In this document: positions 26,441 to 61,086 of the stretch, piece after piece
How the letters are laid out: each line of letters begins with the position of its first letter
Position numbering within the stretch: the stretch's first letter is position 1
NCBI GenBank assembly: GCA_021209875.1
Contig: JAGYVD010000005.1
Location: forward strand, 1-64,000
Length of the DNA: 64,000 bases
Origin: Rosellinia necatrix
Lineage: Eukaryota > Ascomycota > Sordariomycetes > Xylariales > Xylariaceae
Reading direction: 5' to 3'
Translations under genes and position numbers: made by a program
Notes under the pieces: model-generated
Told to the model about the DNA's origin: nothing
Seen by the model: the letters and a program-made list of their open reading frames with translations, nothing else
Database searches by the model: none

Positions 26441-26441
26441 T

Positions 26442-26588: not shown

Positions 26589-26652
26589 TTTAGTGGTTAG
26601 TTCACGAGCTATTCGGCAATTGTTCGGGATAGTGGTGTATGGCAGTTTGCCC

Positions 26653-26695: not shown

Positions 26696-26706
26696 GACAT
26701 ATATAT

Positions 26707-28815: not shown

Positions 28816-29718
28816 TTGAACTTATTTATCCCTTTTATATCTTAATATATATAGATTAATTTATTTTTTTGTTATAAATTAATAGCTAGCGATTTATTTT
28901 AGCATTATTATTATTTGCTTTTTTTTTTTTAAGCTATTATAAACTAATATATTTAAAAACGTTAAAAATTTTATTATAAAAGCTTATTAAACATTTTATA
29001 AAAGTTTATTATTTATTAGTTATTTAAACTTATTATTATAATTTTATTATTTTAATAAATATTATTTTTAATAAATATTTATATAATATAATAATAAGTT
29101 TTTATAAGCTATATTAAATCAGCTAAAAATTAAAATAAAAATAATATTAATATAAATATATTATGTTTATATAAACATATAAAAATTTATAAAATTTTAA
29201 TTTATAATTTAAAATTTTTAAATATTAATTATTATTAATATTATTATATCTAGCTATAAATATAAAAATATTTTATTAATATAATAATTATTATAGTTTA
29301 TAAATATAAATTATTGTTTTATTATATTAATTAATAATTTAGATTTATAATTAGCTATATATTTAATAAAAATAAATTATATAAGTTTAAGCTTAAAAAT
29401 AATTATTTATTAGCTTAAATAAAATTAAAACGTTTATTTAATATATTTTTAAAACGTTAAAAATTATTTATAAAATATATAAAGCTAATAATTATTATAA
29501 GCTTATATTAATATTTTTTATTTATTAAGTTAAGTATAAAAAATAAAAATATAAATTTATTAATTTAATTTAACTTATAATTTTTATTATATGAGATTAA
29601 TTGTATTATAACCTTAAAGTGTTTATATTAAAAAATTTATTATTTAGCCTGATTTATTTAAATATATTATCAGCTAATATTTTACGTTTATAAATTTATT
29701 TAAATATATAAATTAAAT
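28816..29718. other. AT-rich RIP-like DNA
   Basis: Mostly A and T with no open frame of note and no repeat I could match within the window. Confidence 0.6.
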
Positions 29719-31475: not shown

Positions 31476-31480
31476 ATAAC

Positions 31481-31753
31481 TGTAATAGCTGCAATAACAG
31501 CAGTTGAAGAGATTTAACTATACCTATGTATTAAAAAGAAAAACTAAAGTTAAAAAAAAAAGAAAACTATATACAGGGCCGACGGCTAGAATTTTTACTT
31601 GTATATACTACCGGCTATTTACTACGTAACTAGCTTACTACATTTATTACTCTATGCCTGTACCTGCTCTAGCTAAAGGGCTAATCAAAGATCGGCTGGC
31701 CAGACGGCTAATTATTTAATTAAAGATCGTTATTATAGCCTTAGGCTATAATA
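31481..31753 (-). repeat. 3' LTR of gamma-1
   Basis: 273 bp. On the minus strand it starts TATTATAGCC (RIP-changed from TGTTATGGCC) and ends AGCTATTACA. It is more mutated at its start than the 5' LTR. Confidence 0.9.
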
Positions 31754-32990
31754 ATCCTTTTTTTGCAAAAAAACTTGGCCCAAGTTTTTAGCTGCGCGTG
31801 AAGTTAAAAATATGCTAAGCTGATTTTTTTTAAGTTGTTTATGCTACGTTTAAAGCTTAAACTAGCGACTTTTAAATTAATACTTTTAAGTAGTAAAAGA
31901 ATATTTTCAGCGTATATAATTAATTAAAATCTAAAAGTTTTTAATTTCTGGTTTTTATTTATTATGCTAATTAGTTAATTTTTATTTAGTTTATTTTTTA
32001 ATTAAGTTATTTATTATGTTATTTGCGCTACATTTATAACTTCGGCTATACTTTGTTTTACGGTACGTTATTATTATTATATATTTTAATAAATATATTT
32101 TTTTTAGCTGCTTTAATTTATTTTTATAATTGTTTTAGCGGCCCTGCTTTTTTTAAATATTTTTTATAGTATTTTTTTAGCTTAATTAAAACATTTTTTA
32201 AATCGGCTGCTAAATATTAATTATTATTATATTTTTAACTTATTTAAAACATTTTATAAAACAGTTTTTTTTTAAATTTTTAATAACAGAATTTTTTTTT
32301 TTTTTTTTTTTTTAACGTTTTATTAACTATTTTTTTTTAATTAGAGTACTTTTTATTTAAACAACAGATTATTTATATATTTTTATAACTGCTTAATATA
32401 AAATTAGCGGTTTTTTGTTATATTATTAACAACTTTAGCTTAAATATATTAAAACAATTAATTTAAATATTAATAATTTTATAAGCTTGTTATATTATTA
32501 AATAGTTTAACTTATTATTAAAACAATTAGTTTGTTTTTTTTTATAATATAAATATATAGTTTTTAATTATAAAGTTTAAGTCCTGTTAATATTTATTAG
32601 CTTATATAATTATTTATTTTTATATTTTTATATTTATATTTTTGCTTTTTAATATAATCGCGGATTTTTTTGCGAATATTTATATTTTTTTAAAACAGTT
32701 TTTTTTAATTTTTTTATAATTATTTTATTTTTGTTTAAGCTTTTAATTAAACATTATATTTATCGGCCTTTTATTAGCATTTTTTTAAAATAACTTTTTA
32801 AAGCTTTATAAAATAAAAATGTTTAAACTATGTTTAAAACTAATAATATTTTTAATTTGTTTTTTAAAATAATTAACATATAGTTATAATTTTTAATTTA
32901 TTTATTAATATATTATTTTTATTTATTTTATTAATTAATAATGTTTTGCTATAAAAAAATCTAGTTTTATATTATATATTTTTAATAGCT
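31754..32990 (-). pseudogene. Gamma-1 3' part: end of integrase and 3' end
   Basis: Lies between the gamma 3' LTR and the beta element. It is the continuation of the integrase frame interrupted at 39660. The sequence is so rich in stops that I can only place it by position and by Lys/Tyr-rich residual frames, not by clear motifs. Confidence 0.6.
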
Positions 32991-33222
32991 TGTTGCACCA
33001 GTCATAAATAAGAAGTCAAGGCTTCAGCAATAAGTGATGTATTATATAAAAATCTACAGATAAAAAAGGAAAGAGTAAGTGGGAGGAATTAGCCTACTAG
33101 AATTCTGGCTAAGTGCAGGTGTGTAGGGTGGGTCTAGTCTGTGCGTTATGCGCACTAGTTGGCAACAGGTGTATAAATACTAGTTTGTGCTACTTGCATT
33201 AGCTAATTAATTATTTGTAACT
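32991..33222 (-). repeat. 3' LTR of beta-1
   Basis: 232 bp. The plus strand starts TGTTGCACCAGTC and ends TTTGTAACT. Shared with 39426-39659 and, inverted, with 21190-21419. A conserved block is TAGCCTACTAGAATTCTGGC. Confidence 0.9.
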
Positions 33223-35639
33223 ACTTCTCCTTTTAGAAAAAAAACGGCTTGTTTTTTAAGTCGTGTTTATATTTAAACATGTAGCTTTTTAGTATGCTTT
33301 TTAATAAAAAAAAAGATTGCTTCAGGTTTTTATTTTATATTATATTTTTTAAGCTTTTATATTATTAAGTTATTATATAAGTTTTTTTATATTACGTTAT
33401 TAATTTTTTTTTATTTGTTATTATATTTGTTTTTATTTCTGCTTTATTATTTTTTATGATATTATTTTATTGTTATTTTTATATGCTGTATTTAATTTAT
33501 TATTTTTTATAGTTTTAAGCTAATCTTTTAAACGTTTTAAAAGTTCTGCTGTATTTAAATGTTTTTTATAAAATTTTTTTAATAATTTTGCGCTGTTTTT
33601 AAAGTTTTAAGCGAAATATTATTTATTGTTAGTTTTTATTTTTTAAATTATTTAATATTATAGTTTTTTATAATATATTTTTAACGATTTAATTTTTTAA
33701 CTATAAACTTTTTTTTTTTTAAGTTTTATTATTTTATTATTCAGGTTATTAGTTTTTATTTTAACAGTAAGTTATTAAAATATAATTATAGTTTATTAAT
33801 ATAATAATAATTTATTATTTTTATAAAAAAATATTTAGTACAAAAATATTATTATTTTTATTAATTATTTTAAATTTTGTTATGTTATAAAAAGTTTAGC
33901 TTGTTAAAAGTCGGTTAGTTTTTATAATTATTTTTTTTAAAATTAATATACAATTATTTATATTAAAATTAAGTTTTTTTACTTATAATTAATTTATTTA
34001 ATTATATAAGTTTAAGTTTAAATTAAATGTTTTTTATTAAATCTATAAATTAAGCGATTTTTTGTTTTATTTTAAGCTTTTGTTTTAAAATTTTTTTTTT
34101 TAAAAGCTTTTTAACTTTTTGCTGCAGTTTAGTTTTTTAATTAAAATAAAAAATATTAAAAATTTTATTTTTGCTTTATAAAATAATATACTTGTTAATT
34201 TATATAATAATACTGCATATATATAGTTTATTACTAAAATATATTAAAACTAATCGTTTTAATAGTAGTTAATATATAGTTGTAATTATTAATTTAAATA
34301 TTTGTTTATAATTTTTATTTGTTTTATAGTTTTATAATAGCTAATAAAAGCTAAAATATATTTTATATTTATTAGTTTATATAATTTATTTATAAATATT
34401 AAAATAAATTATAAACTTTAATCTAAAATTATTATTGCTAATATATTAAATATTTAAAATAGCTTTTTATAATATATTTTAGCTGCGTTTATTATAATAG
34501 CTTATATAATATATAAAATCGTTCAAGCTTTTTTTTTTAATTAGTTTATTATAATAAGCGCGTTATTATAACTATGTTTATTTTAAAATATTTATTTAAA
34601 GTTTATTATTAAATATTGCTATACGCGGTTAAATATTAATAAAAGTTTTAGTTTATTTAAAGTTTTATCGTGTAATATTTTTGCTAAACGGTATTTTATA
34701 TAGTTTATTATATAAATATTATAGCTATTTATTAGCTTAAGCTACTAGTATTTTTTTAATATTAGTTTTTTAGTTTTACGTTTTTTTAAATATGTTATAA
34801 ATATATAGTTATAGATTTTTATATTAATTTAATTTTTAAATATAAATAGTTTAATACTACTAGTTGTTTATTTATTGTTGTTAATTTGTTTATTATTTAC
34901 TAAAAGTTATTATTTTTAGTTTTTTTAGTTTTATATTAATAAATTTTTATACCGAGGTTTTTACGGTTTTTTTTTAATATTTTTTTAATTAGTTAAAGTT
35001 TTTCTAGATTTTTTAGTTTTTTATATAAATATATTACTAATATTTAATAGTTATATTTTATTTAACCTGGGATATATTTTATAATATTATTTACAGGTTA
35101 AAATACTATTAAATATTTTTAAGCTTTTTTTGCTTTTATATTAACAGATCTTTTATTTTTAAAATAAAACATTTATAATTATATTTTTTTTTTAGTTAAA
35201 AATAATAAAAAATTATATTTTAAAAACAAGTTAGTTTATTCTGTTTATTATAAATTTAAATATTATTTCGTGTTAAAATGTTCTAAAGCTTAATAATTAA
35301 TAATTATTAAAAAGTTTTTTTTTGCCGACTAGTTTAGGTTGCTATTTTTTAAAGCTATAGCTACTATTAATATTTTTTATTAAAGATTTTATAATTTAAT
35401 TTAGTATTATATAGTATTTTTAAAAAATAAGCTGTTAAATGCTAATTTTTTTATATAATTAAAATAACGCGTTAAAAGCTATTTTATTAAAAGAGTTAGT
35501 TTTATTTTAATAAATAAATTATAATTATAATGTTTTAATAGTAGTATAAAAGTTAAAGCTTTTTTAACACGCTAAAAGCTTTATTATATTTATTAGTTTA
35601 TTTAAAAGCTTTTTTTTTTTTTATTAAGCGGTTTATAAA

Positions 35640-35920
35640 AAAAGCTATTTAATTATATTTGTTTATAAACTTTTATAAAAGTTATAAAAACTTAGAAAAA
35701 CTATATATTTTTATAGTAGTAAATATTTTTAATTTATTATAGTTTTTATTTTAGCAGGATCGATATAAATATTATTAATATTTATTATATAGCTTAAAAA
35801 CTTGGTTTGTTTTATATAAAATTTTAATTTTTTTAAGTCGGCCTGCAATTTTATGTTTTATAGTTTTTAAAACATTTTTAAATATATATATAGTAGGTTT
35901 TTATATTATTAAAATAAATA
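35640..35920 (-). pseudogene. Reverse transcriptase remnant of beta-1
   Basis: Minus-strand frames, read through RIP stops, retain the C-terminal part of a Ty3/Gypsy reverse transcriptase: a Lys-rich stretch followed by an FYNFYKSF-like motif, equivalent to the FLGFxNFYRxFI motif of the family. This fixes the orientation and class. The other domains are too decayed to place. Confidence 0.6.
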
Positions 35921-38900
35921 AGAACGTTGTTTATATATATATTATAAAAGTTATTTAAAAATTAAATAATATATTATTAATATATTTTTAAAACAAAAAG
36001 TTTATTTATTAAATTAAACAGAAAAACTTTATAACAGTAGGTTTTATATTTAGTATAAAACATAATAAAGTTTTGTTTTCCGGGTATATTTTAATATCAT
36101 AAAATGTTTATTATATATTAATTTTTATAAAATTTTAATATTAAAAATATAAAACAGGGTTTTTTAATAAAAGTAATAAATACTAGTTTTTTTTTATAAT
36201 TTTATTAAGTTTTTAATAGTTTATATAAAAACGGAGTTTTTTGCTAGCTTTTTTAATAAATAATATTAAAAAGGCATATAATACGTTATTTAGCTTAATA
36301 AATTTTTTTTATAAATTATTAATTAAATGTTTTTGTACGGCGTGCAGCTTATTAAATAATATTTTATATAAAAAACTATATTTTAAGTTTTCTGGGGACT
36401 TGCTGTTTACAAAGTTTATTTTATAGTTTATTTATAGTTAGTAAAAAAGTAATTTATTTAAATTTTTTTTATTAAACGCGTTTAATAAATCGTAGTATTT
36501 AAAAAATATAAGTTCTAATATTTTTTTTTTTACGTTTTTATTTTTTTAGTTTTTTTTGTTTTTTTTTTAGTTAATTAACTTATTAATTTAATAAATACTA
36601 GTAATTTATACCTGGTTATTAGTTTTATTTTTATATATTAACGTTTTAAAAGTAATAGCGCTAAAAGTAGTAATTTAAGTGTTCGGTTTTTTTTTATATT
36701 AATTTATGCTGTTTTTTTTTATTTAATAAAGTTTAAAAATATTTAATTTTTAATTTAAAAATATAGATTGTTTTTTATTTAATATGTTTTTTTTTTTAGT
36801 TTAAAGTTTTAAAGGCTTGTTAAACAGAGGTACGTTTTTTAAGTTTTAGTTTATTTTTTTTATATTTTTTAACGTAAGGTTGGATTTTTTTATAATTTTT
36901 ATTTTTATTACTAGTATTTTTTTGCGGAAGCTTTTTTTAGCTTTTTTTTTTTGGTTTTTTCGACGGGTATTTTTAAAATTAATGTTTTTGTTTTTTTGTT
37001 TAGCGTTTATTTAATATTTTAAGTATTATAACTATGTTTTAGTTTTATTTATAGCTAATATATAATAGCATTTATAATTTTTTAATAAATAAAGTAAAAA
37101 AATTAATATATGCTGTTTAATATTAGGCAATATATTATATTATTTAAACTATTTTTTTTTTAATACTACTTTTTGTTTTATGTTTAAAATATTAACAGGT
37201 ATATTTTTAAATGTTTTTTTATATATTTTTAAAGTTAAGCGTAAAATATAATTAATTTTTTAATCTGATTTTTTATTATATTTAGTTATTAGTTTAAGTT
37301 TAAACTTATTTTTAATAAGTAGGTTTAACAGCTTTATAATTTTTTAATAAAAATATGTTTATATTTATATATATACCGGCTTTTATATTATTAAATACGT
37401 TAAAAATAATAAGCGATAGTTTATTATTATATAAAATATAAATATATAATAAAAGTTTTTATTTAAATAGTTGTTTATTAGGTTTTTTTTTTTATACGAT
37501 AATATTATTTTTAAAAAAGTTTATTTTTTAAAGTTATTTTTTTTTTTTTTGTTGCGCTTTTTTAATTTTAAAAAGCTGGTTTAAACTTATTTATAATTAT
37601 ATTTATATAAGTATTACGTTAAGCTTAATTTATAGCTTTTATAAAATAGTTTTTAATAACGTGTTTTTTTGTTTATATCGGAAGCATTTATTTTTAGCAA
37701 TTAATTATTTTATTTTTTCTGTTATAAGTTAAAGTTTTTATTTTTTATAAATATATTTACTAGCAGAGTTAATTATATTATTATAACTAAAAAAGTTTAA
37801 TATAACAAATATATATTATATTTTATAAGTTGTTTTTGTTTTATAAGCTTTGCTTTTTTTTAATTATTTATAAATAAATAATAAGCTATTTAAATATAAT
37901 ATTTTATATAAGCGTTAAAATTTACAGTGTTTTTAAATATTTAAAAATAGTTTTAATAGTTATATAAAATAATAACTTATTTTTAAATTTTTTTTATTTA
38001 GTTTTATTAAAGCATGTTTTTTAATAAAACGTATAAAATCTGTTTTAAACTATATAAACTTAGCAAGCATATATTTATTAAAATTTAAAGTTTTATAGTT
38101 AGCTTTTATTTTTTAAAACGTTTATATTTTTATAAGTGTTATATAAATATTATATTAAATTTTTAAAGTTATAATTATATTTAAATGTTTATTAAATAAA
38201 TATAAAATTAAGTTTTTAAATGTTTTTTAGCAAAATAAGATTTAATATTGTTTATTTTTATATTACTAGCGAACTAATCTGCGTTTACTTTAAAACAGTT
38301 AGTTATATTTTAATATTATATTTTAAATTTTATTTTATTTTTTAAAGCGTTATTATAAAACTTATTTATAAATATTTTAATTAATTTTTATATTTTTTTT
38401 TAAAATTTTAAAAGCAGGTGTTTTTTTATACGACTTAATAAATTAATTATTTATTAATTAAATTTATTTAATAAGTTTTAAATATAGTTATAATTAATTA
38501 TTATTATTTTTAGTTTAATTATAATATAGTTTATAGCTGCGTTATTATTTTAGCTTTTAAATAATTTAAATATAAAAGTTTATATTTTTGTTTTATTTAT
38601 ATAATTTATTTAATTTTTATTATGTTTTAATAAAGCTTTTTAAATATCGGATAATTATTTTAAGCTATTATTAGCTCTGCTTTAATATTTTTAAATTATT
38701 TTTGCTTTTTATTAAATATTTTTTATATTTTATAATATAAACGTTAAATTCTATAGTTTATTTTATAGCGGTTTTTATTTATCTAGCAGTATAACATATA
38801 ATAAAATAATAGTTAATTGCTGTTTATTAAAAGCTATTAATATATATATTTTAATTTTTATTTTATTAAAAAATAATAAAAATAAAAAAGTTTATATAAA

Positions 38901-39425
38901 GTTTATAAATAATTTTATATTAATAAGTTTATTAAAGTTAAGCTAAACAAAATTGCTTTTTTATAATAAGTTTTTAAAAAAGCCTGTTAGTTGTTTTTAT
39001 AGCAATTATAGCAAAATTTTATATTAAAATACTAACTGCTTTATAAAAAAATTTATAAGTTTTATTATATAAAGCGGCTTAAAAGTCCAAGGTTTTAATT
39101 TACAAATAAAATTTTTAAGCAAAGTTAAACAGTAAGTTTTATATAGCTTTAGTTTTAATATTAGCTTTAATAATTAAATATATTATATTAAGTTTTTTAA
39201 AAATAACTTAAATATATTTAGTTTTAAATATATTGCTAAAAGTTTTTTTAACAAAGTATACTAAAAACTTAAAAACTTTATATAATAAAATAACGTTTTA
39301 GCATGCTAAATTTTTAACACGTTTATAAGCACTGCTAGCAGAAAAAATTAATGCTATATTATTATTTTTATATAAAAAATATTTAAAAAAGCAGTTTTAA
39401 TGTTTTAAAATAAAATAATTTATAG

Positions 39426-39659
39426 ATTGTTGTACTAGTTATAAATAAAAAGTTAAAGCTTTAGCAATAAATAATATATTATATAAAAATTTATAAATAA
39501 AAAAAGAAAAAATAAGTGGGAGGAATTAGCCTACTAGAATTCTGGCTAAGTGCAGGTGTGTGGGGTGGGTCCAGTCTGTGCGCTGTGCGCACTAGTTGGC
39601 AACAGGTGTACGGATACTGGTCTGTGCCACCTGTATTGGCCAACTAGTTATCCGTGACT
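39426..39659 (-). repeat. 5' LTR of beta-1
   Basis: 234 bp. The part farthest from the interior (39515-39659) retains GC-rich, little-mutated sequence (GGGTGGGTCCAGTCTGTGCG), while the inner part is strongly RIP-changed. The lower LTR shows the same contrast less clearly. Confidence 0.9.
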
Positions 39660-39664
39660 TAGCT

Positions 39665-40951
39665 TATTTATAAAATCAGCAATAAATTATTTTTTTTTGT
39701 TGCTAATTATTATTTTTAACTACTTATATATTTAATAAAAGCTTTTATAATATATTTTAACAGTATTTTTTATTATTATAAATTTTTATATATAATTGTT
39801 TATATTAGTTTTAATAATCTGTTAATTATATAAAAGTTATATTATTTTTATATTTGTTTTTAAAAAGCTTTTAAAATTAATTATTATATATTATTAAATA
39901 TATTTTAATATTAATAATAAAGTTAGTTTTTTTAATATTTTATTGCAGAAAATTTTTATAGAGCAGCAAAAATAGTTTGCTATATATTAGTTAATTTTAT
40001 AATATAGCTTTAACCACTAATAACGTTAAAATATTAAGCGTTTTATTTTTTTACGACCTAAATATGCTGTTGCTAGCCTCACGTGGACTTTTTTAATTAT
40101 TTAAGTCTATAGATTATTTAATTTAAAAACAACCAGTTTTTTTTTATATAATAACAGGTTTTTTAATATTAACTAATCGGGGTTTTTGTTAGCCCGGGCT
40201 TTTTTTTAATACTTATTTAGACTAGTGTTATATTGATTTGCCTCTAGTACTGCGTTTATAAGTACTACCCCTGACAGTAGTAGGGGTGTAATGTCCCCTA
40301 CAGTGTATATTTTGTATATACTCCTTTCTACCCTGGAAGTCACCGGTTTAAAAAGGGCCATAGTCCTCTGTTTATCCTTCTGTTGTTTTTGTGTTTTTAG
40401 GTCCTTGTAGTCGAAATGCTTTAGTACTGGTGCATTGGTCAGCCTGTCTTTTAGTGTCTCGAACGCACTCTGGCAGGCTTCCGATTAAGTTAAATCGGCC
40501 CTTGTATAAGTCAGGTTGTTTAATAGTTTAGCTATTTAATTATACTTCTGGATAAACTTTCTATAAAAGTTATAAAAGCTTAAAAACAAGCGCACTTTTT
40601 TTAATAGCGCTTTATTTTTTTTTAAGCGTTTTTTAGCTAGATATAATTTTAATTTTATAAAGGTTAACTTTTATTTTTCTAGTTTTAATAATAAATTTAA
40701 AAAACTTGGTTTTTTTTATATAAAATTTATATTTTTTTAGGTCGGCTTATAGTTTTGTTTTTTTAAAACGTTGCAGCATTTTATCGACGTAATATTAATA
40801 TTTTAGTTTGTTTAAATAAATTAAAATATTATTAATATAAGCTATATAAAAAATATTTAAATATTTTTACAGCGTGTTATTAATATATTTTTAAAAAAAA
40901 GCCGGCTTATTAATGAATTTAAAAAGTAATATTTTAAATTAATAGGCTTTA
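39665..40951 (-). pseudogene. Gamma-1 pol middle: RT C-terminal half and integrase start
   Basis: On the minus strand from 40951 down, residual RT motifs (FINKPAFF, then LSFYNFYRKF near 40560) lead into a nearly unmutated stretch at about 40230-40500 that still reads SEACQSAFETLKDRLTNAPV, a typical Gypsy connection/RNase H lead-in. Integrase follows: YWWPKLYYKI and a Cys-Cys zinc-finger remnant at about 39990-40050, then IIINFKSF near 39865-39890, where the first catalytic Asp has become Asn. The frame is broken at 39660 by beta-1. Confidence 0.85.
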
Positions 40952-40956
40952 TACTA

Positions 40957-41139
40957 TAGTAAAGTTTACTAGGGGTAGTGTGGTTAAGTCTGTAAAAATG
41001 TAATATAGAATTTAAAAAAGAAAAGCTTTTGGTCCTGCAAGGACTAAAAGCCTTAAGCTAGTACTTTATCTAATCTATACAATTTTTATCTAGCTAGCTT
41101 TGCTAACTAAATAAAAAGCCCCTCTTCTTAACTATATTA
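40957..41139 (-). repeat. 3' LTR of alpha-2
   Basis: 183 bp. The minus strand starts TAATATAGTTAAGAAG. It retains GTTTACTAGGGGTAGTGTGG at its lower end. The hairpin near 41090 is weakened by changes on one arm. Confidence 0.92.
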
Positions 41140-41207
41140 AATGCCAAGGCCACAATAAAGCGTTATTATCTTTAATAACTATAATTTTTTTTTATTATTT
41201 ACAAGGT

Positions 41208-44200
41208 TGGCCACGGCTTTTTTTTAATTTTTCTAGCTAAAGTTTATTTTTCTTTTAATTCTAGTATTTTTTAATTAGTTTTTTAGCACTACGTAGTTAC
41301 TACTTTAATTTTTACTAGTTGTTTTATAACTATATTTTTTATTTAATAAAATAATTAAATTTATTTTTAATATAGTTTATTTAATGTTTAAAAATTATTT
41401 TGATTTTAAATAAGTTATTTTTTTTTTAAGTTCTATTTTTTAAACACCAGGCTTAATACTAGTATTTTTAATAAAAAAATTTTTACTAGTATTTTTAAAT
41501 AATAAATATACAACTAAAATAATAAAATAAATATTAAAAGTTTTCGGCAATTTTAATTTATAAGCTAACTTATTAATTTTTTTTAATTTTTATAATTTTA
41601 CGCGTTATTAAAAATATTTTTAAACGGCTTTTTAAAAAATAATATTTTAAATAAAGTTTTAAATATATTATATTTTTACGTTAAATTTTATTAATTTATA
41701 TTTATTATTATAATATTATTTTATATACGCTGCTATAAAATTTATAGCTAATTTTATATTTTTATAAAAATATTTTTATATAAATTAAATGTTTTTAATT
41801 ATTATATTTATTTTTATGTTAATAAAAATATTATTTAATTTAAATAGCTAAAATTTAAAAAGCTGTTTATAAGCTAATAATTTAATAAGTTTTAAATACG
41901 TTTTATTTAAATTTTACTACAGAAATAACAATATATTTACTTAATCGCGGTTTAAATATATATATATATAATACTAAATAATAATTTTACTGTTTAATTT
42001 TTTGTTTAAACAAATTATTATTTTATAAATAATAAAAATTATTATTAATAGTTTTGCTTTTATAGCTTTTAAAGCTCCGTTTAAAATTTAAAAATAAATT
42101 TATAATTTTAATTAAAAATAATACCGCTTAATACACTTTAATTAAATAATAAAATTATTTAATTAATACTTCTGTTTAATTTTTAACAGAGTATTTTTAT
42201 TACTAAAATAAATAATAAACGTTTTAATATAATATATATTATTATTATTAATATATTATAATAATTAAATTTTTTAATTGCTATAGTATAGCTAAAAATA
42301 ATATTTTAAATAAGCTTATAATAAAATCTATTATAATTATTTTTATTAGCTTAATATTTTCTGGTCAAATAAATTAATAATTATTATACAGCTTTTTCTG
42401 TTAATACTACATAACTTATATTTATTGCAATAATTTAAATATGTTTTTATTTTGCAAATTTTAATTTAATTATATAAAGCTTTAATTTTTTATTATATAC
42501 TGTTTATTAAAATAATATTTGTTATTATATGCTATTATTAAAAATTTAACTATTTATTTTTAAAACATATAATTTATATTTATTTCTTTAGTTAACATTA
42601 TATAATAAATTGTTTATAATTATAAAAGATATCTAAGCTTAAAAAAATTCGCAACGTTTTTGTTGCTTTTATAAATTATTTTTAGAACTTTTTAATATTT
42701 AAAATCTTTAGCATAATCTATTATAATTTTAGCTTTTATTATTTTTTTATTATTAGTTTTAAATATACTATTTATATATTATTTAATATTAGTTTTTATT
42801 TGTTTAGATTATTTTTTTTAATATTTATTAAATTAATAATATTTTTAATCGATTAAGCGTATTTAAAACAAAGTTTAGTTTGCTTAACATATAATATATT
42901 TATAGTTTATATTATAATAAATATATAAACGCGTTAACTAAACGTTTATTTATATAGTCGGTAAATCTATTATTAAGCTTAGTTTAATTTAATATATTTT
43001 TTATTACTAAATAATCAGTAAAAAAAACTATTAAATTAATTAAAGCTTTAATTATAGTTTGCAGGCGTTAACATATTTAAACTATATAAGCTACTTCTAG
43101 CTTAAAAGTCTATATTTTATTTCTAGTTATAATATATAACAACTTAAAAATATTACTAGCAACATTTATATGTTTAAAATTATTAATCTTAGTTTTTATA
43201 TATATTTATTTTTAATATAAAACAATATTATTTTAAAGCTTTTTTTAATAAGCTATTTATTTATATATATAATATTTTTATAAAATTATAATAATAAAAT
43301 ATAATATATAAATATATTAAATTTTAAAAGCTTTAAATAATTTTATTTTAGCTATAATTAGTTTAAAATATATAAACTAATAATATATTTAATACTTGCT
43401 ATAATTATTAACTTTATATTATTTTATTTAATGTTTTTATTAAATAGTTTTATTTTACGTTTTTATAAAAGTTCTATAATTTTAGTATAATATAATAATA
43501 ATATATAAAAAATCTTATATTTTTAAATATTATTTTAAAACTTTTAACTAATTTAAAAATTTAAAGTTTTTAAATGCTGCTAATTGTTTTTATTATTAAA
43601 AGACCTAAAACATTTATTTAAAAACTTAATAGTTTAACAAAAAATATAATAAAAGTTTTTTTAAAATAAAAAATTCTTTTTATTAAACAGTATAAAAATA
43701 TTACGTAAATAAGCTAAATAATCTGTTTTAATGTTTAAAAAATAATAATATTATTAATAAAAGCTTTATAATAATGTTTATAAAAACAAAATAATTTATT
43801 TATAAAACGTTAAACATATATAAACATATTATAAAATTTTATTAAAGCTATTATTAATTGTTTTAGTTTTTAAAACTTATTATTATAAATTAGTTTTAAT
43901 AATTAAAATAAACTGCAAATTAATAAAAAAAAGCGGTTATATTTACAACAGTTAAATATTTTTTTTTTAATTAAAGTAATAACTATAGATTATAACAGCA
44001 ATAAATAGTTGTTTAAAACAGCTATTTTATTTAAAACCTATAAATCGACCACTAAATATAAATATAGTTTTTTTTATATAAGCTATATAATAAAAGTCGG
44101 ATATATAAATAAAAAAACTATTAATTTATTTTATTTTATTTTATTTATAAAGTTTATTAAATATTATATTAACTATTTTTAATCGCATGCGTTAAAAAAA

Positions 44201-44868
44201 TATCATTAAAAATTTAGTTTTATTTATTATTAATTATTAACTAAAAAATTTTTATTTGTTTTTCTATAATATATTAATAATGCTTTAGTTTTTTAAATAT
44301 TAAATATTTTTATAACAACTTAAAAATTTTTAACGCTATAATATTTTTTTATATAAATAAATTATTTATTTAAAGCTTTAACTTTATTTTTTTGCTAAGC
44401 TTTTTATATCTAGTATTAATAAAACCTTTTAAATTTTAAGCTTAAATATTTTATTTAATTATTTATTTATTTTTATTATAAGTATTTCTGCCGCGTAAAT
44501 CGCGTTAATTATATCTGCTCCGCTAGTTATATTAGCTATATTAAAAACTTTATTAAAAAAAAAGCCTGTTAAAAAAATACTGTATTGTTTTAACGCGTTA
44601 ATTATTCTAGCGATTATACTAGTTTTTGTTATAGTTAAGTCTAAGCTTTAAGTTACGTTACAACTTTAATATATATTAACAGTAATAATAGCAACAATAA
44701 AAGTTATTAATATAAAATTTATTAATAAATATATATTTAATAATTTAAAATTATTAAAAATATATATTTTTTTTAAATATAAAAATACTAAAATTAATAG
44801 CTAATAAAATATTTTAAAACGCGTTAAGCAGCAGGCCAGTATTAATTAGTAATATATTAATTATATTT
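41208..44868 (-). pseudogene. RIP-destroyed pol of alpha-2
   Basis: Counterpart of the alpha-1 pol region. The reverse transcriptase active site lies at about 43745-43775 and again encodes Asn-Asn in place of Asp-Asp. Integrase is at about 42030-42530 and the chromodomain remnant at about 41320-41420. A plus-strand open frame at 46072-46326, antisense to the element's Gag region, is a by-product of the low stop density on that strand. Confidence 0.8.
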
Positions 44869-47800
44869 ATAGTTTTAGCTGCTGCTAAACTTATAGTTAT
44901 TATTACAGCTTTTAAAAAATTTTTATATATTTTTAATATTTAATTTTTAATATAGTTATTTTTAAATTATATTTATTTAAATATTTTTAAAAATAGTTTT
45001 AGTTTTAAAAAACAGATTAGCAATTATTACGTTTAAAAAGTTATAAATTTAATTAAAGCTGCTACACTGTTTTTTATAATAATTTAAATATAAAGTTTTT
45101 ATTTTTAAATAATAGTTTATATTTAGCTAGTGCTAATATTAATGTTTTAAGCGCTAAAATAATTTTTTATGCTAAAATTATTTTATATATATATAAGTTT
45201 ACTTTAAAAATATTTAAAAAATATTTTAAAGTTTTTAACGTTTATAAAAATAATTATATTTAAATTATAATCGATTAAAACTTCGCGAGTATTTAAAAGT
45301 TATTTTTAATAATATTTTAATTTTGTTTTTTTTTATAACTTAAGCTATATTTATAAATTCTAGTAATTATAAAAATTTATAATCGTTATTACTTAATATA
45401 TAAAATTTTAGCATAGCTTTTATTTATATTTAATTTAATTATTTCTTACTTTTTAAATCTAGCCTGTTTATTTTTAAAAATATGTTTAAATTTATTTAAT
45501 AATTGTTTTATTATTATTAAGCAAATACAACTTATATTTAAGCTTATAATAACGTTTTTGCTATTTATAGATTTTTAATAATAATTTTAAAATATAAAAA
45601 TTATTATTTTTGTTTTATTTTTTAAAATTATATAACTTATTAAATGTTTTTAAACTAACGGTATAATTAATTTATTTTTCTGTCCAAAATTTATAATTTT
45701 TTCTGCTACTATATTTTTAATTAGTTTAGCTAAAAAAATAATTTTAGCATAATTTTTAATATAATATTAAAACAATTATATTTATATAAATATTAAAACA
45801 ATATATTATATAATATAAACAATATATTATATCGCTTATAAATACGTTTAATTAAAAATAATATGTTTTAAATATATTTAACTAGACGTTTAATATAACA
45901 TATAATATGTTAACCCTAGTTATATATTAAATTAAACATTTAATTATAATATTTATATAATTAATTATAATTAATTATAATAAACGTTTTATTATTATTT
46001 AATTTAAAGCTAAATAAAGCATAAAATAATATTACGTTTAATATTAACAAGTCTAACTTAGCTGCGTTAGCATGTTTTTTTTAATAGTAATTATATTTAT
46101 TTTTACGTTTATTCCGGCTATTTTTTCTTTTATTATTTTTTTTTTTTTATTTAAGCTTACAGCTTTTTTTTTATTTTTATATTATTTTTTTATTTTTGTT
46201 TTTATTTTAATCTATGTTTTTCTGCCGCTTATTTTTTTAATTAAACTTTTTGTTATAGTTTTAATTGCTTTTTTAACTTGCAAATACTTATTTTTGCTGC
46301 TGCTATTAAAAAAAGCTTTGTTTTAACAACTTAAATTATATATCCAGCTAAAATATTTTTATATTAAACGCTAAAAATATTATTTAATTTTAAAATTTAT
46401 ATTAGTTTATATTATAATTATAATATTATATTAATTTCTATTATTAACGTTTAAAGTTTTTATAGCTTAAACATATTTTAGTTTTTTTATATACATAATA
46501 AAACCAGTATTTTATTATACGATGTTTTTAATAATAATTTAGTTTAAATAAAACGTTTTATTACTACAGCAGGTTATATATTAAATTAAATAATTATTTT
46601 ATTTAAAATAACGTTTAATTTTTATATTTTAAGCTTAAATTATTTATTAATAATTAATTTATTATTTTATTATAAAACTGCTAATTTTTTAATAATATTT
46701 AAAATATAATCAGAATTTATTAAATATTTTATTCTGCTACTTCTAGATTTTTAAAAATAAATTAACTTTTTCCGTAAAATAAAATACGTCGGTAAAAATA
46801 AACTTATTTTTATTAGCTATTATTTTTATATTGTTTTTATTTTTTTTATTCGGGTTAAACTAGCTAATATTAGCCTGTTTTATATAATTATTATATAATA
46901 AAAAGCAAAGCTATTAAATATTTAATATTTTTTTTTAATTATTTTTTGTTTATATTTATAATTATTTTTATTATTTCGACCTTTTAATTAAAAAGTTGTT
47001 TTAAAGGTTTTTTTATTTTTTTTATTGTTCATATTTAAACTATTTAGATCGTTAAAATTATTGTTTATTAGAAATAGTTTTAATAAGTTTTTATTACCTG
47101 CTAAATATTATAGTTTTAAAAATATTATAGCAAAAAATGTTGCAAGTATATTATATTTAAATTAATATAAAATAAAAAACTTTATATATTGCTATATTGT
47201 TTTAATAAACAAAGCTTTTATTAACAGGTATACAGCTTATGCTTTAAAGCGAACTATTAAAATAATAAGTACTAGTGCTACTATTAAAACCTGTGCTAGT
47301 CCCGTTAAAAATATTAAAATAAATAATTTAAATAATAGTCCTAGTACTAGTATAGCTGCGGTTAAGTATTAATAACCAAAGTGTTATAGTTGAACAGGCA
47401 GTACTGCTGCATATTTAATTATATTTAATACAGCTTTAAATAACTAATTAACAGCGCAATAAAATGCTTTAAAAGCTAAAGTTTTTATATCTGCCGGCAT
47501 TTTAACGTTTTTTAGTTATTATATTAATTAATTAACTATTTTTGCTACTTTTATACTTTTAACATGCTTTTTATTTTAATTATATTATTTTTTAATTTAT
47601 TATATTAATTTTATAAAAGTCTATAACTAAAATAAATAATTTAAAAGCTTGCTTATTTAGTTTAAATCTTAATTTTTAATCTTAGAATTTAAATTGCTAT
47701 TATTATAATAATTTATTTATATTTTTAACGATATAGTTTTTAAAACTATTTATTTTTTTAAAAAAAAAAAACTGTTATAATTATTAAACGTTGCTTTTTT

Positions 47801-48971
47801 AGCTTTAAATTAAACAATAATTTTAAAGTTCTTATTAAATTTTTATTAATTTTATATTATTTTTAAACAGGTTTAAAATATAAACCTACGATTTTTATTA
47901 TTGCTTAATTTAAACTTATTATTAAACTTATTTTAAACTATATTTTTTTTTTAACATAAAATATTTAATATTTATAGTTTTAATTTTTAATTTTATATAA
48001 ATCAAAAAATGCTAGCTTAATAAACTTAAGTTTTATTAGCAAAAATAACGTTTTTTCTGCATTATTTTAAAAATTAATAGTTTAAGTTAGATTATACTAA
48101 AGCTAAAAGTTTTTTTTGTTTTTATAAGCTTTAAAATTAAATTTTTAACTATTAAAACTATTTTAAATTTTTAAATATTAAAAATTCGGTTTTACGTTTT
48201 AATATATTAACAATTATTAAATAAATTAATAATAAAACAAATATATATAAGTCGTTTTATAATTAGCTTAACAAATATTATTAATTATTTTATAAATTTA
48301 TACTTATATATATATATTTTAAAACAAAATTAAATTTTAAAATTAAAAATAAAATAAAAATATAATCAGATAGTACTAAAAACCTGCATGCTTATTAAAA
48401 AACTTAACACAAGCTTTTAAAAAATAAAGCTAATTATAATTACGTTTAAAATATATAATTATTATTATTTAAATATAATACTAATTAAAGTTTAAAAAAC
48501 AACTAATTATAATACTATAATTATTAAATATTTAATATTAAAATAATTAAAGTTTAAAAACAACAGATTATTTTAATATATTAATAGCTAAATATAATAA
48601 TATATAAACAATTAATAATTTAAACTGTTTAAAATATAATATAAAGTTAAATTTAACTGCTGTTGTAGTATTTTTTTACTTTTTATATTAATAAAAATAA
48701 AATAATCGATAAGCTAACGCAGGATATATTAAATCAATTAATTAATTAAATTTACAAGTTAATAAATATTAATAGATTTTACTAGCAACAGTTAAGCTTA
48801 AAAGCTAATAATTTTATTTTTTTTATAAACAGCGCTGCTTAAAATATAAAAAAAAGCTGTGTTAAAAGTTAAATACACGCAAACGTTAAAAAACTAAACG
48901 TGTTTTATCTGCCGATACAAAAAAAAAACTAAAATATAAAATCGTGTAATTATAAAACTTACTGCATTATT

Positions 48972-49154
48972 TAATAAAATTTACTAAGGGTAATATAATT
49001 AAGTCTATAAAAATATAATATAGAATTTAAAAAAAAAAAACTTCTGGTCCCGCAAGGACTAGAAGCCTTAGGCTAGTACCTTATTTAATTTATACAATCC
49101 TTATCTAGCTAGCTTTGCTAGCTAGATAAGGAGCCCCCCTTCCTAACTGTGTCA
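48972..49154 (-). repeat. 5' LTR of alpha-2, least mutated end
   Basis: 183 bp. The minus strand starts TGACACAGTTAGGAAGG, the best preserved LTR start of the family and so the guide to the original TG terminus. Both hairpins are present: a GCTAGCTTTGCTAGC core at about 49105-49135 and a CTAGTCCTTGCGGGACC-like one at about 49045-49070 (minus strand). Confidence 0.93.
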
Positions 49155-52038
49155 TACTAGGTCTAAGAAACAGTTAACTTTTTGTTTTTTTTTATAATAT
49201 AAATGCAGTAGAATGCCTGTTTAATATTAATTTTTATAAATATTTTAGCTTGTGCTATATAAGCTAATATTTTTTTAATTAGCAGTAATAAGTATTAGTT
49301 TTTTATAATTAATATATAAATATAAAAACCTATGGCTTTTATATGTAAAAAATATAAAAGCTGCTTATAAAGCTAGTATAAGTTTTATAAATTTTTTATT
49401 AAATTATTATAAATATATTATTAATACGTTTTAACTTTTTAAATAATATTTTATATAAAAACTATATTTTAATAATCTTAGGTTTTAGTTTAATATTAAA
49501 TAATAGTTAATTTCTGGTTTATATAAAAATAAGTTGTTTAAAGCAGCTTTTAAAAAATATTTAAATACTTGTAGTAAGCTTTTAAAACAATTTATAATAA
49601 GTTTTTTTTTAGTTCTATTTTATTTTTATTTAATAGTTTATTTTAAGTTTTTTGTTTTTTATGTTTTATTATTTTATTAATTTTATATAGCATAGTTATA
49701 CCGTAGTATATTATATTATTTTATTATAGCGTTATATTAAAAGCTATAGCTTTAATAGTTGTAATTTTTAAAAGTTAGTTCTTATATTATTTAATAACGT
49801 TTTATTAAAGTTAATATAAGCTTTAAATATTTTTTTTAAGCGGAGTTTTTATTTTCGGTTTAATTTTTACTATTTTTAAAATTAAATTAATATTTTTCTT
49901 TTTATTTAATACTTTTTTTATTTTATATATTGCTTATATAGTTTTATTTTTTATTTAAAATAACTGTTGGTTTTAAAGCTTTAGAATAACTACTAAAGTA
50001 GGTTTAAAAAAGCTAAAGCTTTTCGGGTTTATATTATTTATAGTCGGCTTAATTTTTAGCTTAATAATTTTTTTGTTGTATTTAGTTTAAAATATTTTGT
50101 TTTTACAGCTTTTTTTTTTGCTGCTTTTAATTAAGTCGCTTATTTTTACGTTTTTTATTTTTGCGGTTTATTAGCTTTTTTTTTTAAGCGACGTTTTTTT
50201 AATATTTAAAATGTTTTAATAAGTTGCTTATTTTATTTATTAAAATTTTAAAAACTTAATACTCTGGTTTTTAATTATTTAAAAACAAAAATTGTTTATA
50301 TAAAAAATTTATTAACACGTTATAATAATTATAATATTTTTTTTAATAATTATATTATATTTTATATTAATTATAATTAAAAAAGCCTTTCATACTATTT
50401 TTTTTTTTATATTTTAAAATATGCTTTTAAAGCCAGGTCTATTTATTAAGTTAAATTGCTGTTATATCTAGCGATAATAACTAGTTTAAAGCTTGTTATA
50501 ATTTTAAGTTTTAAGTATTTTATTATTTAAGCAGTAAAAGTTATATTAATTAAAATATATACGTTTGCTTTTATATTAACTAAAGCTTTAATAAATAATA
50601 TAAATTTATTATTTCTTATAATATAATCTATAAAAATAAGTTTTTTTAAAATGCTTTTAAAAAATTAAACAGGATTTTTTATATTATATTATATTAAATA
50701 CTAATATTTTCTGCTTAAAAAAAGTTTATTTATTTTAAGCTGTTTTTTTTTTTTTATTTATTTTTTTTTTATATAATCTGTTTTTATAGTTTTTATAAAA
50801 ATAATATTAACATATATATTATTTAGTTAATTAAAGTTGCTTTTATAAAAATAATTATTATTGTAATATTTTTATTTATAACAAATAAAACATTTGCTTT
50901 TTAAAATAAAAGCTTTAAACTAATTTAATTTTAGCTTAATATAAATTTTTGTTTTATTTTTGCTAGTTTAATAGTAGCAACGCTTTTATTATTATTTTTT
51001 AATATATAAATGTTTTTAAGTCGGGGGCTATTTTAAGCAGCTTAAGTTAAAGTTTTTTCCAGTTTTTTATTTTTTTTTAAATTTTTTTTTTTTTGTAAAG
51101 CCTTGCTTTAAATAAAGTTTTTCTGCTGCTAATAATTATATAACTATATATATTTATAATAAGCAGTAAAATTTATTATTTTATTATATAGTTTGTTTAT
51201 ATAAAATTTATTTAAACGTTTAAATAATTTGTTATATATGTTCTGCTTAAAATTTTTAAATTAACCTGTGCTATGCTAGCTTATTAAATAAATTTAATAT
51301 AAAATAAAATAAATTTATTTTTGCAGCTATTTTAAGTTTTAATATTTAACTTTAGCTTTTTATACTTATTAAAATTATTATAAAATAAAAAAAAATAGGT
51401 TAAAACTTTTCGGCTAGTTTTTAATATTAGTTTACTATAATTATTAATAATAAATAATATAAAGTTTTTAAAGCTTTGCTTTTTATATAGCTAACAATAT
51501 AATCGATTTTTTTAATTTATATTAAAAATAGTTGCTGTTTTTAATAAGTTTGCTTTTAAAAATATAAACTAATGTTTAAATTTTATTTTTAGTTTATTAT
51601 TTATTAGTTTTTGCTTATAAAAACCAATAGTTTTATAGCTTTAAAATTAATTTTAATTTTTTTAATATATTATAAATTAAAAATGCTTAAGTTTTACTTT
51701 AATATAGTTTTTAGCGACTATTAAATATTTTATTTAGCTGGGCAGATATTATAATAATTTAATTTTTAAAATTTTAATCTTTTTGTTTGCTTTAATTAAA
51801 ACGTAATTTAAATTAGTTTTAATTTTTTATTTTATAAGCTAAACTAGTTTATTTAATATAATATTTATATAAAGTTGTTATTTGTTTTATTTATTAAATT
51901 AATAATATTTTTTAAAATGTTTTAAACAGCGCTAATAAATAATAAGCAGTATTTAAATTTATAATATATTTTTTTAAAATAGTTTTAAACTAATTTTATA
52001 AACTATTAAAAGTTTATAACGCTATTTTATAATAAAAA
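49155..52038 (-). pseudogene. Gamma-1 5' half of pol and Gag region
   Basis: Between alpha-2 and alpha-3. The lowest part (about 49160-49230, minus strand) reads IYIIKKNKKLTVS, the RT segment that continues on the other side of alpha-2 at 40951 as YKAY-stop-FKILLF. Farther up it is decayed Gag and protease sequence, Lys-rich in the minus frames, without identifiable motifs. Confidence 0.7.
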
Positions 52039-52224
52039 TAGTATAGTTTACTTAGGGTAGTGTGGTATTAAGTCTGTAAAAGTGTGATGTAGAATTAAAA
52101 AAAAAAGGGCTTTTGGTCCTGCAGGGACTAGAAGCTTTAGGCTAGTATTTTATTTAATTTATATAATTTTTATTTAGTTAGCTGCGCTAGCTAGATAAAA
52201 AGCTTTTTTTTTTTAACTGTGTTA
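52039..52224 (-). repeat. 3' LTR of alpha-3
   Basis: 186 bp. The minus strand starts TAACACAGTTAAAAAA and ends GTAAACTATACTA. It shares TAGGGTAGTGTGG with the other copies. Confidence 0.92.
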
Positions 52225-52343
52225 AGTGCTAAGGCTATAATAAAACGTTATTGTTTTTAATAACTATAATTTTTTTTTTACTGTTTATAAAGTTAGCTAC
52301 GGCTTTTTTTTAATTTTTTTAGCCAAGGTTTATTTTTTTTTCG

Positions 52344-55300: not shown

Positions 55301-56004
55301 AAAAAATATAATTAAAAGTTTAGCTTTATTTATTGCTAATTATTTATTAAAAAGATTTTTATTTGTTTTTTTTAGTATATTAATAATACTTTAGTTTTTT
55401 AAATATTAAGTATTTTTTTAACAACTTAAAATTTCTAGTGTTATAATATCTTTTTTATATAAATAAACTGTTTATTTAAGGCTTTAATTTTGTTTTTTTA
55501 CTAAGCTTTTTTATATTTAGTATTAATAAAATTTTTTAAATTTTAAGCTTTAAGGCTTTGTTCAGCTATTTGTTAGTTTTTATTACAGGCGTATTAATTG
55601 CGTTAATTTTATTTGTCGCGTTTGCTATATCGAAAATTTTATTAGAAAAAAAGCTTTTTAAAAAAATTTTATGTTGTTCTAACGTATTAATTATTTTAAC
55701 GATCGCGCTAGTTTTTATTATAGTTAAGTTTAAATGCTAAGTTATATTATAATTTTAATATATATTAATAATAATAGCTGCAATAATAAAAGTTATTAAT
55801 ATAAAGTCTGCTAATAAATATATGTTTAATAATTTAAATTTATTAAAAATATATATTTTATTTTTAAATATAAAAATACTAAAATTAATAGCTGATATAA
55901 TATTATAAAGCGTGTTAAATAATAAGCCGGTATTAAATAGTAGTAAATTAGTTATATTTATAACTTTAGCTGCTGCTAAGCCTGCAGCTATTATTATAGT
56001 TTTT
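52344..56004 (-). pseudogene. RIP-destroyed pol of alpha-3
   Basis: Counterpart of the pol regions of alpha-1 and alpha-2, with the RT active-site sequence near 54845-54880 (again AAT AAT on the minus strand), integrase at about 53120-53630 and the chromodomain remnant near 52400-52510. A 60-codon plus-strand frame at 55558-55740 is antisense and hydrophobic from T-rich codons; I do not call it a gene. Confidence 0.8.
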
Positions 56005-59000: not shown

Positions 59001-60104
59001 AAACCTAGGATTTTTTATTATTGTTTAATTTAAACTTGTTATTAAACTTATTTTAAACTATATTTTTTTTTTTTAACACGAAGTGTTTAATACTTATAGT
59101 TTTAGTTTTTAATTTTTGCATAAAGCAAAAAAATGCTGGTTTAATAAACTTAAGTTTTGCCGGCAAAAATTAGCGTTTTTTTTATATTATTTTAAAAATT
59201 AATAGTTTAAATTGGATTATTTTAAAGCTAGGAATTTTTCTGGCTTTTATAAGCTTTAAAGTTAAATTTTTAATTATTAAAACTATTTTAAATTTTTTAA
59301 GTGGTAAAAATTCTAGGTCGGTTTTACGTTCTAATATATTAATAATTATTAAGTTTATGCAAATTAATAATTAAAATCTATATTAATATTAATAGCAGGG
59401 CAAATATATATAAGTTATATAATTTTTGCAATTAAGCTGGCAAATATTATTAGCTGTTTTATAAATTTATATTTACGTACACGTTTTAAAACAAAATTAA
59501 ATTTTAAAATTAAAAATAAAATAAAAAATATAATTAAGTAGTATTAAAAACTTATATGTCCGTTAAAAAACCTAACGCAGGTTTTTTAAAAAAATAAAGC
59601 TGGTATTAATTATAAGTTATAATTTTTATTATTTAAATATAATATTAATTAAAGTTTAAAAAAACAGCTAATCGTAATACTATAGTTATTAAATATTTAG
59701 TATTAAAATAATTAAAGTGTAAAAAAACAACAGATTATTTTAATATATTAATAATTAAATATAATAATATATAAACAGCTAGCAAAGCTGTTTAAAATAT
59801 AATATAAAGTTAAATTTAGCTGCCGGTAAATTAGTCGACTAGCTGGCTAACGCAGGATATATTAAATCGTTAGTTATTAAATTTATAAGTTAAATAAATA
59901 TTAATAGATTTTGCTAGCAACAGTTAAGCTTAAAAGCTAATAATTTTACTTTTTTTTATAAACAGCGCTGCTTAAAATACAAAAAAAAGCTATATTAAAA
60001 ATTAAATATACGTGGACGTTAAAAAATTAAGCATGCTTTATCTGCCGACATAAAAAAAAAACTAAAGTATAAAGTTATATAATTATAAAACTTACCGTAT
60101 TATT

Positions 60105-60290
60105 TAATATAGTTTATTTAAAATAGTATAATATTAAGTCTATAAAAATATAATATAAAATTAAAAAAAAAAAAGCTTCTGGTCCCGCAGGGACTAGAAG
60201 CTTTAGGCTAGTACTTTATTTAATCTATATAATCTTTATCTAGCTAGCTGCGCTAGCTAGATAAGGAGCCCCCTCTTCCTGACTGTGTTA
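60105..60290 (-). repeat. 5' LTR of alpha-3
   Basis: 186 bp. Both hairpins are intact: GCTAGCTAGCTGCGCTAGC core at about 60238-60262, and CTTCTGGTCCCGCAGGGACC near 60176-60196, with one G-T type mismatch in each outer arm. Confidence 0.92.
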
Positions 60291-60295
60291 AAAAA

Positions 60296-60808
60296 TATAT
60301 GCTTTTTTTTAAGCGTTATTGCTGCAAATATTATTTTAAATTATTTATTAATAATAAAATAAGCTGCATTAATTTTTATTTATTTTATAAAGTTTTTATA
60401 AAGTTTTAAAAAAAACTAGCTATATATAAGCTTTAGCTATTATTTTAAGCGGCGCGATTTTAATATAAAAATATTAATAAATTTGTTTTTTTTTGTTTTT
60501 GTTTCTGTTATAACTATTATTTTTATATTTAAAACGTTTTATTATATTAATATTATCTGTTTATAATACTAATTTTATAAACTTTAAAAACTGGCAATAA
60601 AGTTTACAGTAATTATATTAATTAACGTTTTAAAATATTAGTTTATTTAAATCGTTTTTTTTAAAGCGTATTTATTGTTTAGCTTCTGCTAAAAAAGTCG
60701 GGTCGTTTTTTTTTATTATAATATTTTAACGTGTTAATTAATTAATCAGTATTAATTAATTAAAAAAATTTTATGTTTTTTTAAACAGTAAAAAATAAAC
60801 TTTAGTTT
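60296..60808 (-). other. Gamma-1 leader region between its 5' LTR and alpha-3
   Basis: 513 bp of RIP-degraded sequence immediately inside the 5' LTR. It should hold the primer-binding site at its upper end (minus strand AAACTAAAGTTTATTT), but I could not match it to a tRNA end. Confidence 0.6.
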
Positions 60809-61081
60809 TATAATAGCTGTAATAACAGCAGTTAAAAAGATTTAACTATACTTATATATTAAAAAAAAAAACTAAGGTTAAAAAAAAAAAAAAACTATAT
60901 ATAGGGCCGACGGCCAGAATTCCTACTTGTATATACTACCGGCTATTCACTACATGACTAGCTTACTACATTTACTACTCCATGCCTGTACCTGCCCTAG
61001 CTAGGGGGCCAATCAGGGATCGGCTGGCCGGACAGCCAGTCATCCAATCAGAGATCGCCATCATGGCCTTGGGCCATAACA
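60809..61081 (-). repeat. 5' LTR of gamma-1
   Basis: 273 bp. The minus strand starts TGTTATGGCCCAAGGCCATG and ends AGCTATTATA (CA changed to TA). The outer two-thirds (about 60900-61081) retain normal G and C, while the inner part is RIP-changed. Confidence 0.9.
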
Positions 61082-61086
61082 ATAAC

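What the first reader, a model, noticed from the sequence alone, without database searches (positions are those of the whole stretch)
31481..61081. Three-insertion nested retrotransposon stack with target duplications at every level
The sequence shows a 273-bp LTR pair 29.6 kb apart with matching ATAAC flanks, and inside it three complete elements with TAGCT, TACTA and AAAAA duplications. Removing them leaves a ~6.47-kb Gypsy element whose RT motifs continue across the alpha-2 insertion point (IYIIKKNKKLTVS on one side, FKILLF and FINKPAFF on the other) and whose integrase is cut by beta-1. This gives a relative dating series for RIP: the host gamma must be older than the beta and alpha insertions.
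Basis: partly seen in the sequence, partly recalled or inferred. Interest (0 to 1): 0.75.

Follow-up and report, generated by a model that had tools for sequence, protein, structure and literature searches.

The report
Nested fungal retrotransposons scarred by RIP

Summary
The stack is real. A Gypsy-type LTR element (gamma, LTRs 31481-31753 and 60809-61081, target duplication ATAAC) holds three complete insertions: beta 32991-39659 (TAGCT), alpha-2 40957-49154 (TACTA), alpha-3 52039-60290 (AAAAA). Each gamma remnant, searched on its own, maps co-linearly on 8 of 8 other gamma copies fetched from the same genome, and those copies are uninterrupted at all three points. Gamma reads on the minus strand. 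The dating claim fails: in the four pairs 134 of 135 LTR substitutions are RIP-type transitions and the host pair has no other difference, so only the nesting gives order. What the LTRs do record is position. In 21 of 21 LTR pairs (three families) the outer third of the left LTR keeps C/G that its twin has lost; on the right the mirror image holds in 20 of 21. Of 10 gamma LTRs classed as solo, 9 are almost unmutated. RIP is thus weaker toward the outer edge of the repeat. This gamma copy also has a private deletion of about 385 bp with almost unmutated flanks. Nested, RIPed LTR stacks are known; the edge gradient is the useful part.

The parts
31476..31480 (.). gamma target-site duplication ATAAC, left copy
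31481..31753 (-). gamma left LTR (the 3' LTR, since gamma pol reads on the minus strand), 273 bp
31754..32990 (-). gamma remnant 1 (3' part of the internal region), ends with the beta target duplication TAGCT 32986-32990
32991..39659 (-). beta insertion, complete; LTRs 32991-33222 and 39428-39659; TG...CT ends; RT-like motif on minus strand near 35937 read by eye, no Pfam hit
39660..39664 (.). second copy of beta target duplication TAGCT
39665..40956 (-). gamma remnant 2: RT_RNaseH_2 start (about 40404-40481) and Integrase_H2C2 (about 39963-40112); ends with alpha-2 duplication TACTA
40162..40600 (.). almost unmutated block of gamma around the private deletion
40400..40414 (.). site of the private deletion (372-389 bp, by copy compared) inside the RNase H coding part; the stretch is present in 8 of 8 other copies
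40957..49154 (-). alpha-2 insertion, complete; LTRs from 40957 and from about 48972; RT-like motif minus near 43761 read by eye, no Pfam hit
49155..49159 (.). second copy of alpha-2 target duplication TACTA
49160..52038 (-). gamma remnant 3 (RT-like at its left end by eye; the rest unassigned); ends with alpha-3 duplication AAAAA
52039..60290 (-). alpha-3 insertion, complete; LTRs from 52039 and from about 60105; RT-like motif minus near 54866 read by eye; not scanned with Pfam
60291..60295 (.). second copy of alpha-3 target duplication AAAAA
60296..60808 (-). gamma remnant 4 (5' leader side); not scanned with Pfam
60809..61081 (-). gamma right LTR (the 5' LTR), 273 bp
61082..61086 (.). gamma target-site duplication ATAAC, right copy

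Best explanation
A Gypsy-type LTR retrotransposon (gamma) integrated in a subtelomere of a Xylariaceae-like ascomycete and duplicated 5 bp of target. Three later integrations (one beta, two alpha elements) hit gamma itself, each with its own 5-bp duplication. RIP, in one or several rounds, turned all four into AT-rich wrecks. RIP acts over shared homology but weakens toward the place where the homology ends, so the outer parts of both LTRs keep more C/G than the inner parts. LTR-pair divergence here therefore measures position and RIP dose, not time. Shown: the nesting, the target duplications, occupied versus uninterrupted sites, almost pure RIP-type divergence, the edge gradient in three families, nearly unmutated solo LTRs, and a RID-like methyltransferase gene in the genome. 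Inferred: that RIP by RID is the mutator; that the gap of about 385 bp in this gamma copy existed before RIP and made an internal homology edge; and any order of RIP relative to the three insertions.
For: Stack. RIP signature: and (of LTR positions that are C in one or both twins, the fraction changed is highest in CpA in all three families: 0.67, 0.48, 0.55; the last rests on 29 positions). Edge gradient: (left third 21 of 21 pairs, right third 20 of 21; outermost bins, left LTR v right LTR: gamma 0.67 v 0.37 and 0.28 v 0.86, beta 0.91 v 0.46 and 0.46 v 0.90, alpha 0.86 v 0.25 and 0.33 v 0.94). Solo LTRs: (9 of 10 at 48-51% GC, against means of 28% and 34% for left and right LTRs of the nine full copies). 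Deletion flanks: (three 100-bp windows 4.3-5.0 sd above this copy's background; 0 of 1375 overlapping pooled background windows as high). RID-like protein: (822 hits, best 120 listed; the first 34 have 61-73% identity and nearly all named ones bear names of Xylaria, Nemania or other Xylariales; two lower Apiospora hits are named 'RIP defective'); Nemania serpens and Xylaria hypoxylon are Xylariaceae.
Against: The gradient does not appear where other gamma copies carry private indels: 3 insertions in L014 and L015 (6 flanks, excess at most +0.02), and the deletions in L013 and L009 show no clear one next to the breakpoint (L013 is less mutated 100-200 bp away on the left, the left side of L009 had no usable columns). 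They may postdate RIP, but that is not shown. One beta pair (L034) breaks the right-hand pattern; of 7 further gamma LTRs without a fetched partner 1 (L062) goes the wrong way. At the six gamma flanks of the three insertions only one (right of alpha-2) shows protection. The alpha pairs come only from this window (3). The decay length is not resolved: at the LTR midpoint the twins are equally far from the edge, so their difference must vanish there whatever the scale.
Confidence: 0.85

Rival explanations
1. The LTR pairs form a usable clock: more divergence means older insertion, and RIP can be dated along the stack.
For: Nesting does make gamma older than its guests.
Against: alpha-3, a guest, is the most diverged of the four pairs (81.9% against 85.3% for the host); non-RIP differences do not rise with depth; same-end LTRs of different copies are on average more alike than the two LTRs of one copy in all three families (0.874 v 0.833, 0.893 v 0.851, 0.877 v 0.822).
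Confidence: 0.04
2. Left and right LTRs differ because whole elements multiplied as DNA (segmental duplication) after RIP, not by new retrotransposition.
For: Left LTRs resemble left LTRs of other copies, right resemble right.
Against: 21 of 21 copies have perfect 5-bp target duplications, with 9 different ones in the 9 gamma copies; the left/right difference is a directional C/G loss in three different LTR families. Flanking DNA beyond the duplications was not compared.
Confidence: 0.03
3. The unmutated block at 40162-40600 is not an edge effect but a local patch: gene conversion from an unmutated copy, or chance patchiness of RIP.
For: Private indels in four other gamma copies lack such a block; RIP is patchy (background sd 0.12-0.13).
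Against: The block is centred on the deletion and tapers on both sides; no background window of 1375 is as high; no other place matched across the deletion junction in one piece (73 matches listed, 40 of 95 candidates scored).
Confidence: 0.35
4. alpha-2 was already in place when gamma was RIPed, whereas beta and alpha-3 arrived afterwards.
For: Gamma just right of alpha-2 is protected (14 of 17 C/G kept in this copy, maximum 0.35 in others; 3.9 sd; the window includes 3 bases of alpha-2); both beta flanks and both alpha-3 flanks are not beyond background.
Against: The left flank of alpha-2 is not protected, although an edge should protect both sides.
Confidence: 0.25

Closest known systems
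Nested LTR-element clusters in Mycosphaerella graminicola (PMC4522978)
   Same: LTR base element with later LTR elements inside, 5-bp target duplications, CpA-biased transitions; 78 clusters, a 47-kb example; the authors say RIP may have inflated LTR ages (passages seen)
   Different: Different fungus; the passages seen do not mention an outer/inner LTR gradient
crapaud LTR elements of Podospora (PMC10787394)
   Same: LTRs of full copies are RIPed while solo/fragment LTRs mostly are not (passages seen), as found here
   Different: No left-versus-right LTR comparison in the passages seen; that paper links solo escape to small size
RIP in Neurospora crassa (PMC4858203)
   Different: The terms edge, boundar, gradual and flank have no occurrence in its main text; the gradient here comes from natural LTR pairs
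Ty3/Gypsy LTR retrotransposons
   Same: RNase H before integrase zinc finger in gamma, 5-bp target duplications, LTRs
   Different: Nothing structurally unusual except non-canonical LTR ends in beta (TG...CT) and alpha (TA...CA or TA...TA); that TG...CA is the usual form is recalled

Membership tests
LTR retrotransposon (gamma) | Two LTRs in direct orientation with target-site duplication | tested here: met
Ty3/Gypsy (gamma) | pol order RT, RNase H, integrase | tested here: inconclusive
   RT_RNaseH_2 (E 9.2e-5, 22.9 bits, cut-off 29.8) before Integrase_H2C2 (E 2.6e-4, 21.5 bits, cut-off 25.5) on the minus strand; RT read by eye only; three of four remnants scanned
Ty3/Gypsy (beta, alpha) | Gypsy pol profile | tested here: inconclusive
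   No Pfam family in any of the 12 frames of beta and alpha-2; RT-like motif by eye; alpha-1 and alpha-3 not scanned with Pfam
Insertion into gamma (beta, alpha-2, alpha-3) | Uninterrupted gamma sequence at the site in other copies, duplication present once | tested here: met
   8 of 8 copies at each of 3 sites; the 5 bp are RIP-altered in some
RIP | Transitions of C-to-T type dominate, CpA preferred | tested here: met
RIP | Mutations confined to repeats | not tested
   No non-repeat control DNA was measured; the GC-rich island fits but was not compared
RIP | RID methyltransferase homologue in the host | tested here: met
   by similarity only, no tree; part of the open frame fetched
RIP | Needs a sexual cycle | not testable with these tools
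   Organism unnamed

The most novel reading that the evidence does not exclude
RIP needs homology on both sides of a base: it fades toward any end of shared homology, whether the end is the outer LTR border or an internal deletion in one copy. LTR pairs are then a built-in experiment (identical sequence, different distance to the edge), and protected flanks at nested junctions could tell which insertions were present when RIP struck.
Probability: 0.5. Interest if true: 0.55.

Novelty: new member of a known kind. Interest (0 to 1): 0.36.

Why it matters
The stack itself is ordinary for RIP fungi. The useful point is practical: LTR-pair divergence, often used to date fungal elements (as in PMC4522978), is here set by position relative to the repeat edge, so both ages and LTR groupings built on identity mislead (left LTRs group with left, right with right). 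The same gradient gives a simple natural measure of how RIP treats the end of a homologous tract.

Tried and rejected
Dating by LTR divergence: rejected. Segmental duplication to explain left/right grouping: rejected. Private indels in other gamma copies as further edge tests: negative (3 insertions; 2 deletions). Pfam on beta and alpha-2, both strands: no hit. Protein search with the 24915-25664 ORF to name the host: no hit at E 0.001; Pfam on five ORFs of the GC-rich island: none at E 0.01. Rfam at gathering threshold and bacterial-code tRNA scan of the window: nothing. Literature: searches looked for an edge gradient or LTR-age work, 41 for nesting. I saw the listings and, by term search, passages of PMC10787394, PMC12543289, PMC4858203, PMC11969663 and PMC4522978; none of what I saw states an outer/inner LTR gradient. 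Only open-licence PMC is held, so this is no claim that it is unpublished. The first BLAST script timed out and was rerun with other scoring (whose output was cut, mainly for L012; one search covers L012).

Rows dropped: of 15 beta stretches fetched, 8 gave a pair and 7 did not (L038, L040, L042, L044-L047: no proper partner LTR in the stretch). Of the gamma places (42 matches, 40 of 237 candidates scored), 8 pairs were fetched besides the window's, then 14 single LTRs. Alpha LTR loci L018-L024 were not used in pair counts. One search found no private indel of 60 bp or more in the beta alignment.
Full report
The window is the first 64 kb of contig 9 of a 49.1-Mb, 12-contig genome and starts with 35 copies of the telomeric repeat. 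The genome carries a RID-like methyltransferase; among the best 120 of 822 hits the first 34 have 61-73% identity and nearly all named ones are Xylaria, Nemania or other Xylariales, and Nemania serpens and Xylaria hypoxylon belong to the Xylariaceae. The host is therefore probably a Xylariaceae-like ascomycete; the species is not known.

Observation. The four LTR pairs, their ends and their 5-bp duplications were read from the sequence and checked by script. The gamma remnants, each searched separately, lie in the right order and orientation on eight other gamma copies (L012, cut from that output). At all three insertion points those eight copies are uninterrupted and hold the duplicated 5 bp once, RIP-altered in some. 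Elsewhere L014 and L015 have private insertions and L009 and L013 private deletions.

Orientation and coding. Gamma pol reads on the minus strand: RT_RNaseH_2 and Integrase_H2C2 were found in one minus frame of remnant 2, nothing in 9 of 9 plus frames; remnant 4 was not scanned. Both scores are below Pfam's curated cut-offs. One further weak hit in another frame (LETM2_N, E 0.083) I take as chance. Beta and alpha-2 give no Pfam match but show RT-like stretches by eye: beta, alpha-2 and alpha-3 on the minus strand, alpha-1 on the plus strand. The window-left LTR is thus gamma's 3' LTR.

Dating. Within the four pairs (gamma, beta, alpha-2, alpha-3) the differences are 40, 35, 26 and 33 RIP-type transitions, 0, 1, 0 and 0 transversions, and 0, 2, 1 and 1 gap events. 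The host is not more diverged than its guests. Nesting alone says gamma came first; it gives no order among the three guests.

Edge gradient. Comparing twins that were identical at insertion (a property of LTR elements, from general knowledge), the outer third of each LTR keeps C/G that its twin, lying inward, has lost: left third 21 of 21 pairs, right third 20 of 21 (exception L034), in gamma (9 pairs), beta (9) and alpha (3). Same-end LTRs of different copies are therefore on average more alike than the two LTRs of one copy, which explains why raw identity does not pair the two gamma LTRs. The scale is not resolved, because twins are equally far from the edge at the LTR midpoint. Of seven further LTRs with gamma internal sequence on one side, 6 follow the pattern and L062 does not. 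Of ten LTRs classed by their flanks (by eye) as solo, nine are nearly unmutated and the one in this window, 26704-26975, is partly mutated; L064 was classed solo although its flanking 5-mers do not match exactly.

Deletion. This gamma copy lacks 372-389 bp, by copy compared, in the RNase H part; the stretch is present in 8 of 8 other copies. In the genome search no other place matched across the junction in one piece (73 matches, 40 of 95 candidates scored). Its flanks are almost unmutated: three 100-bp windows are 4.3-5.0 sd above this copy's background and none of 1375 overlapping pooled background windows reaches them. The window directly left of the breakpoint had too few columns there; under a laxer column rule its last 50 bases keep 13 of 15 against 23 of 75 in the others. 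An internal homology edge during RIP would explain it; other copies with private indels do not show it, so this step is inference.

Junctions. Of six gamma flanks at the three insertions, only the one right of alpha-2 is protected (3.9 sd). This hints that alpha-2 was present when gamma was RIPed, but its left flank says no; I leave it open.

Comparison. Nested LTR stacks under RIP are described (PMC4522978, passages), as is the escape of solo LTRs (PMC10787394, passages). The stack is a new example of a known kind. The natural gradient at repeat edges is the part worth following.

Noticed in passing
2-211: Telomeric repeat AACCCT x35: the window starts at a chromosome end
   Followed up: partly
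5592-6286: Array of about 77 copies of the 9-mer TTTATTTAA; the long ORF listed there is an artefact of it
   Followed up: no
6397-6703: Five copies of a GC-richer 62-bp tandem unit beside the AT-rich array
   Followed up: no
9714-17989: A further alpha copy in the opposite orientation with target duplication ATATA; same edge gradient in its LTRs
   Followed up: yes
20907-21424: Beta fragment: LTR plus adjoining internal sequence, minus orientation
   Followed up: no
21500-29000: Island of about 32-48% GC in a subtelomere that is mostly 4-30% GC, with ORFs that match no Pfam family (5 scanned) and inverted-orientation repeats between its two ends
   Followed up: partly
26704-26975: Gamma LTR without internal sequence, partly mutated unlike the other nine classed as solo
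   Followed up: partly
L015:1084-1364: Nearly unmutated solo gamma LTR inside a heavily mutated gamma copy
   Followed up: partly
G000:C11:2476412-2477351: Second DNA-methylase match with in-frame TAA and TAG: intron-bearing or broken gene
   Followed up: no
beta and alpha LTR ends: Non-canonical LTR ends: TG...CT in beta (9 of 9 copies), TA...CA or TA...TA in alpha (3 of 3)
   Followed up: partly
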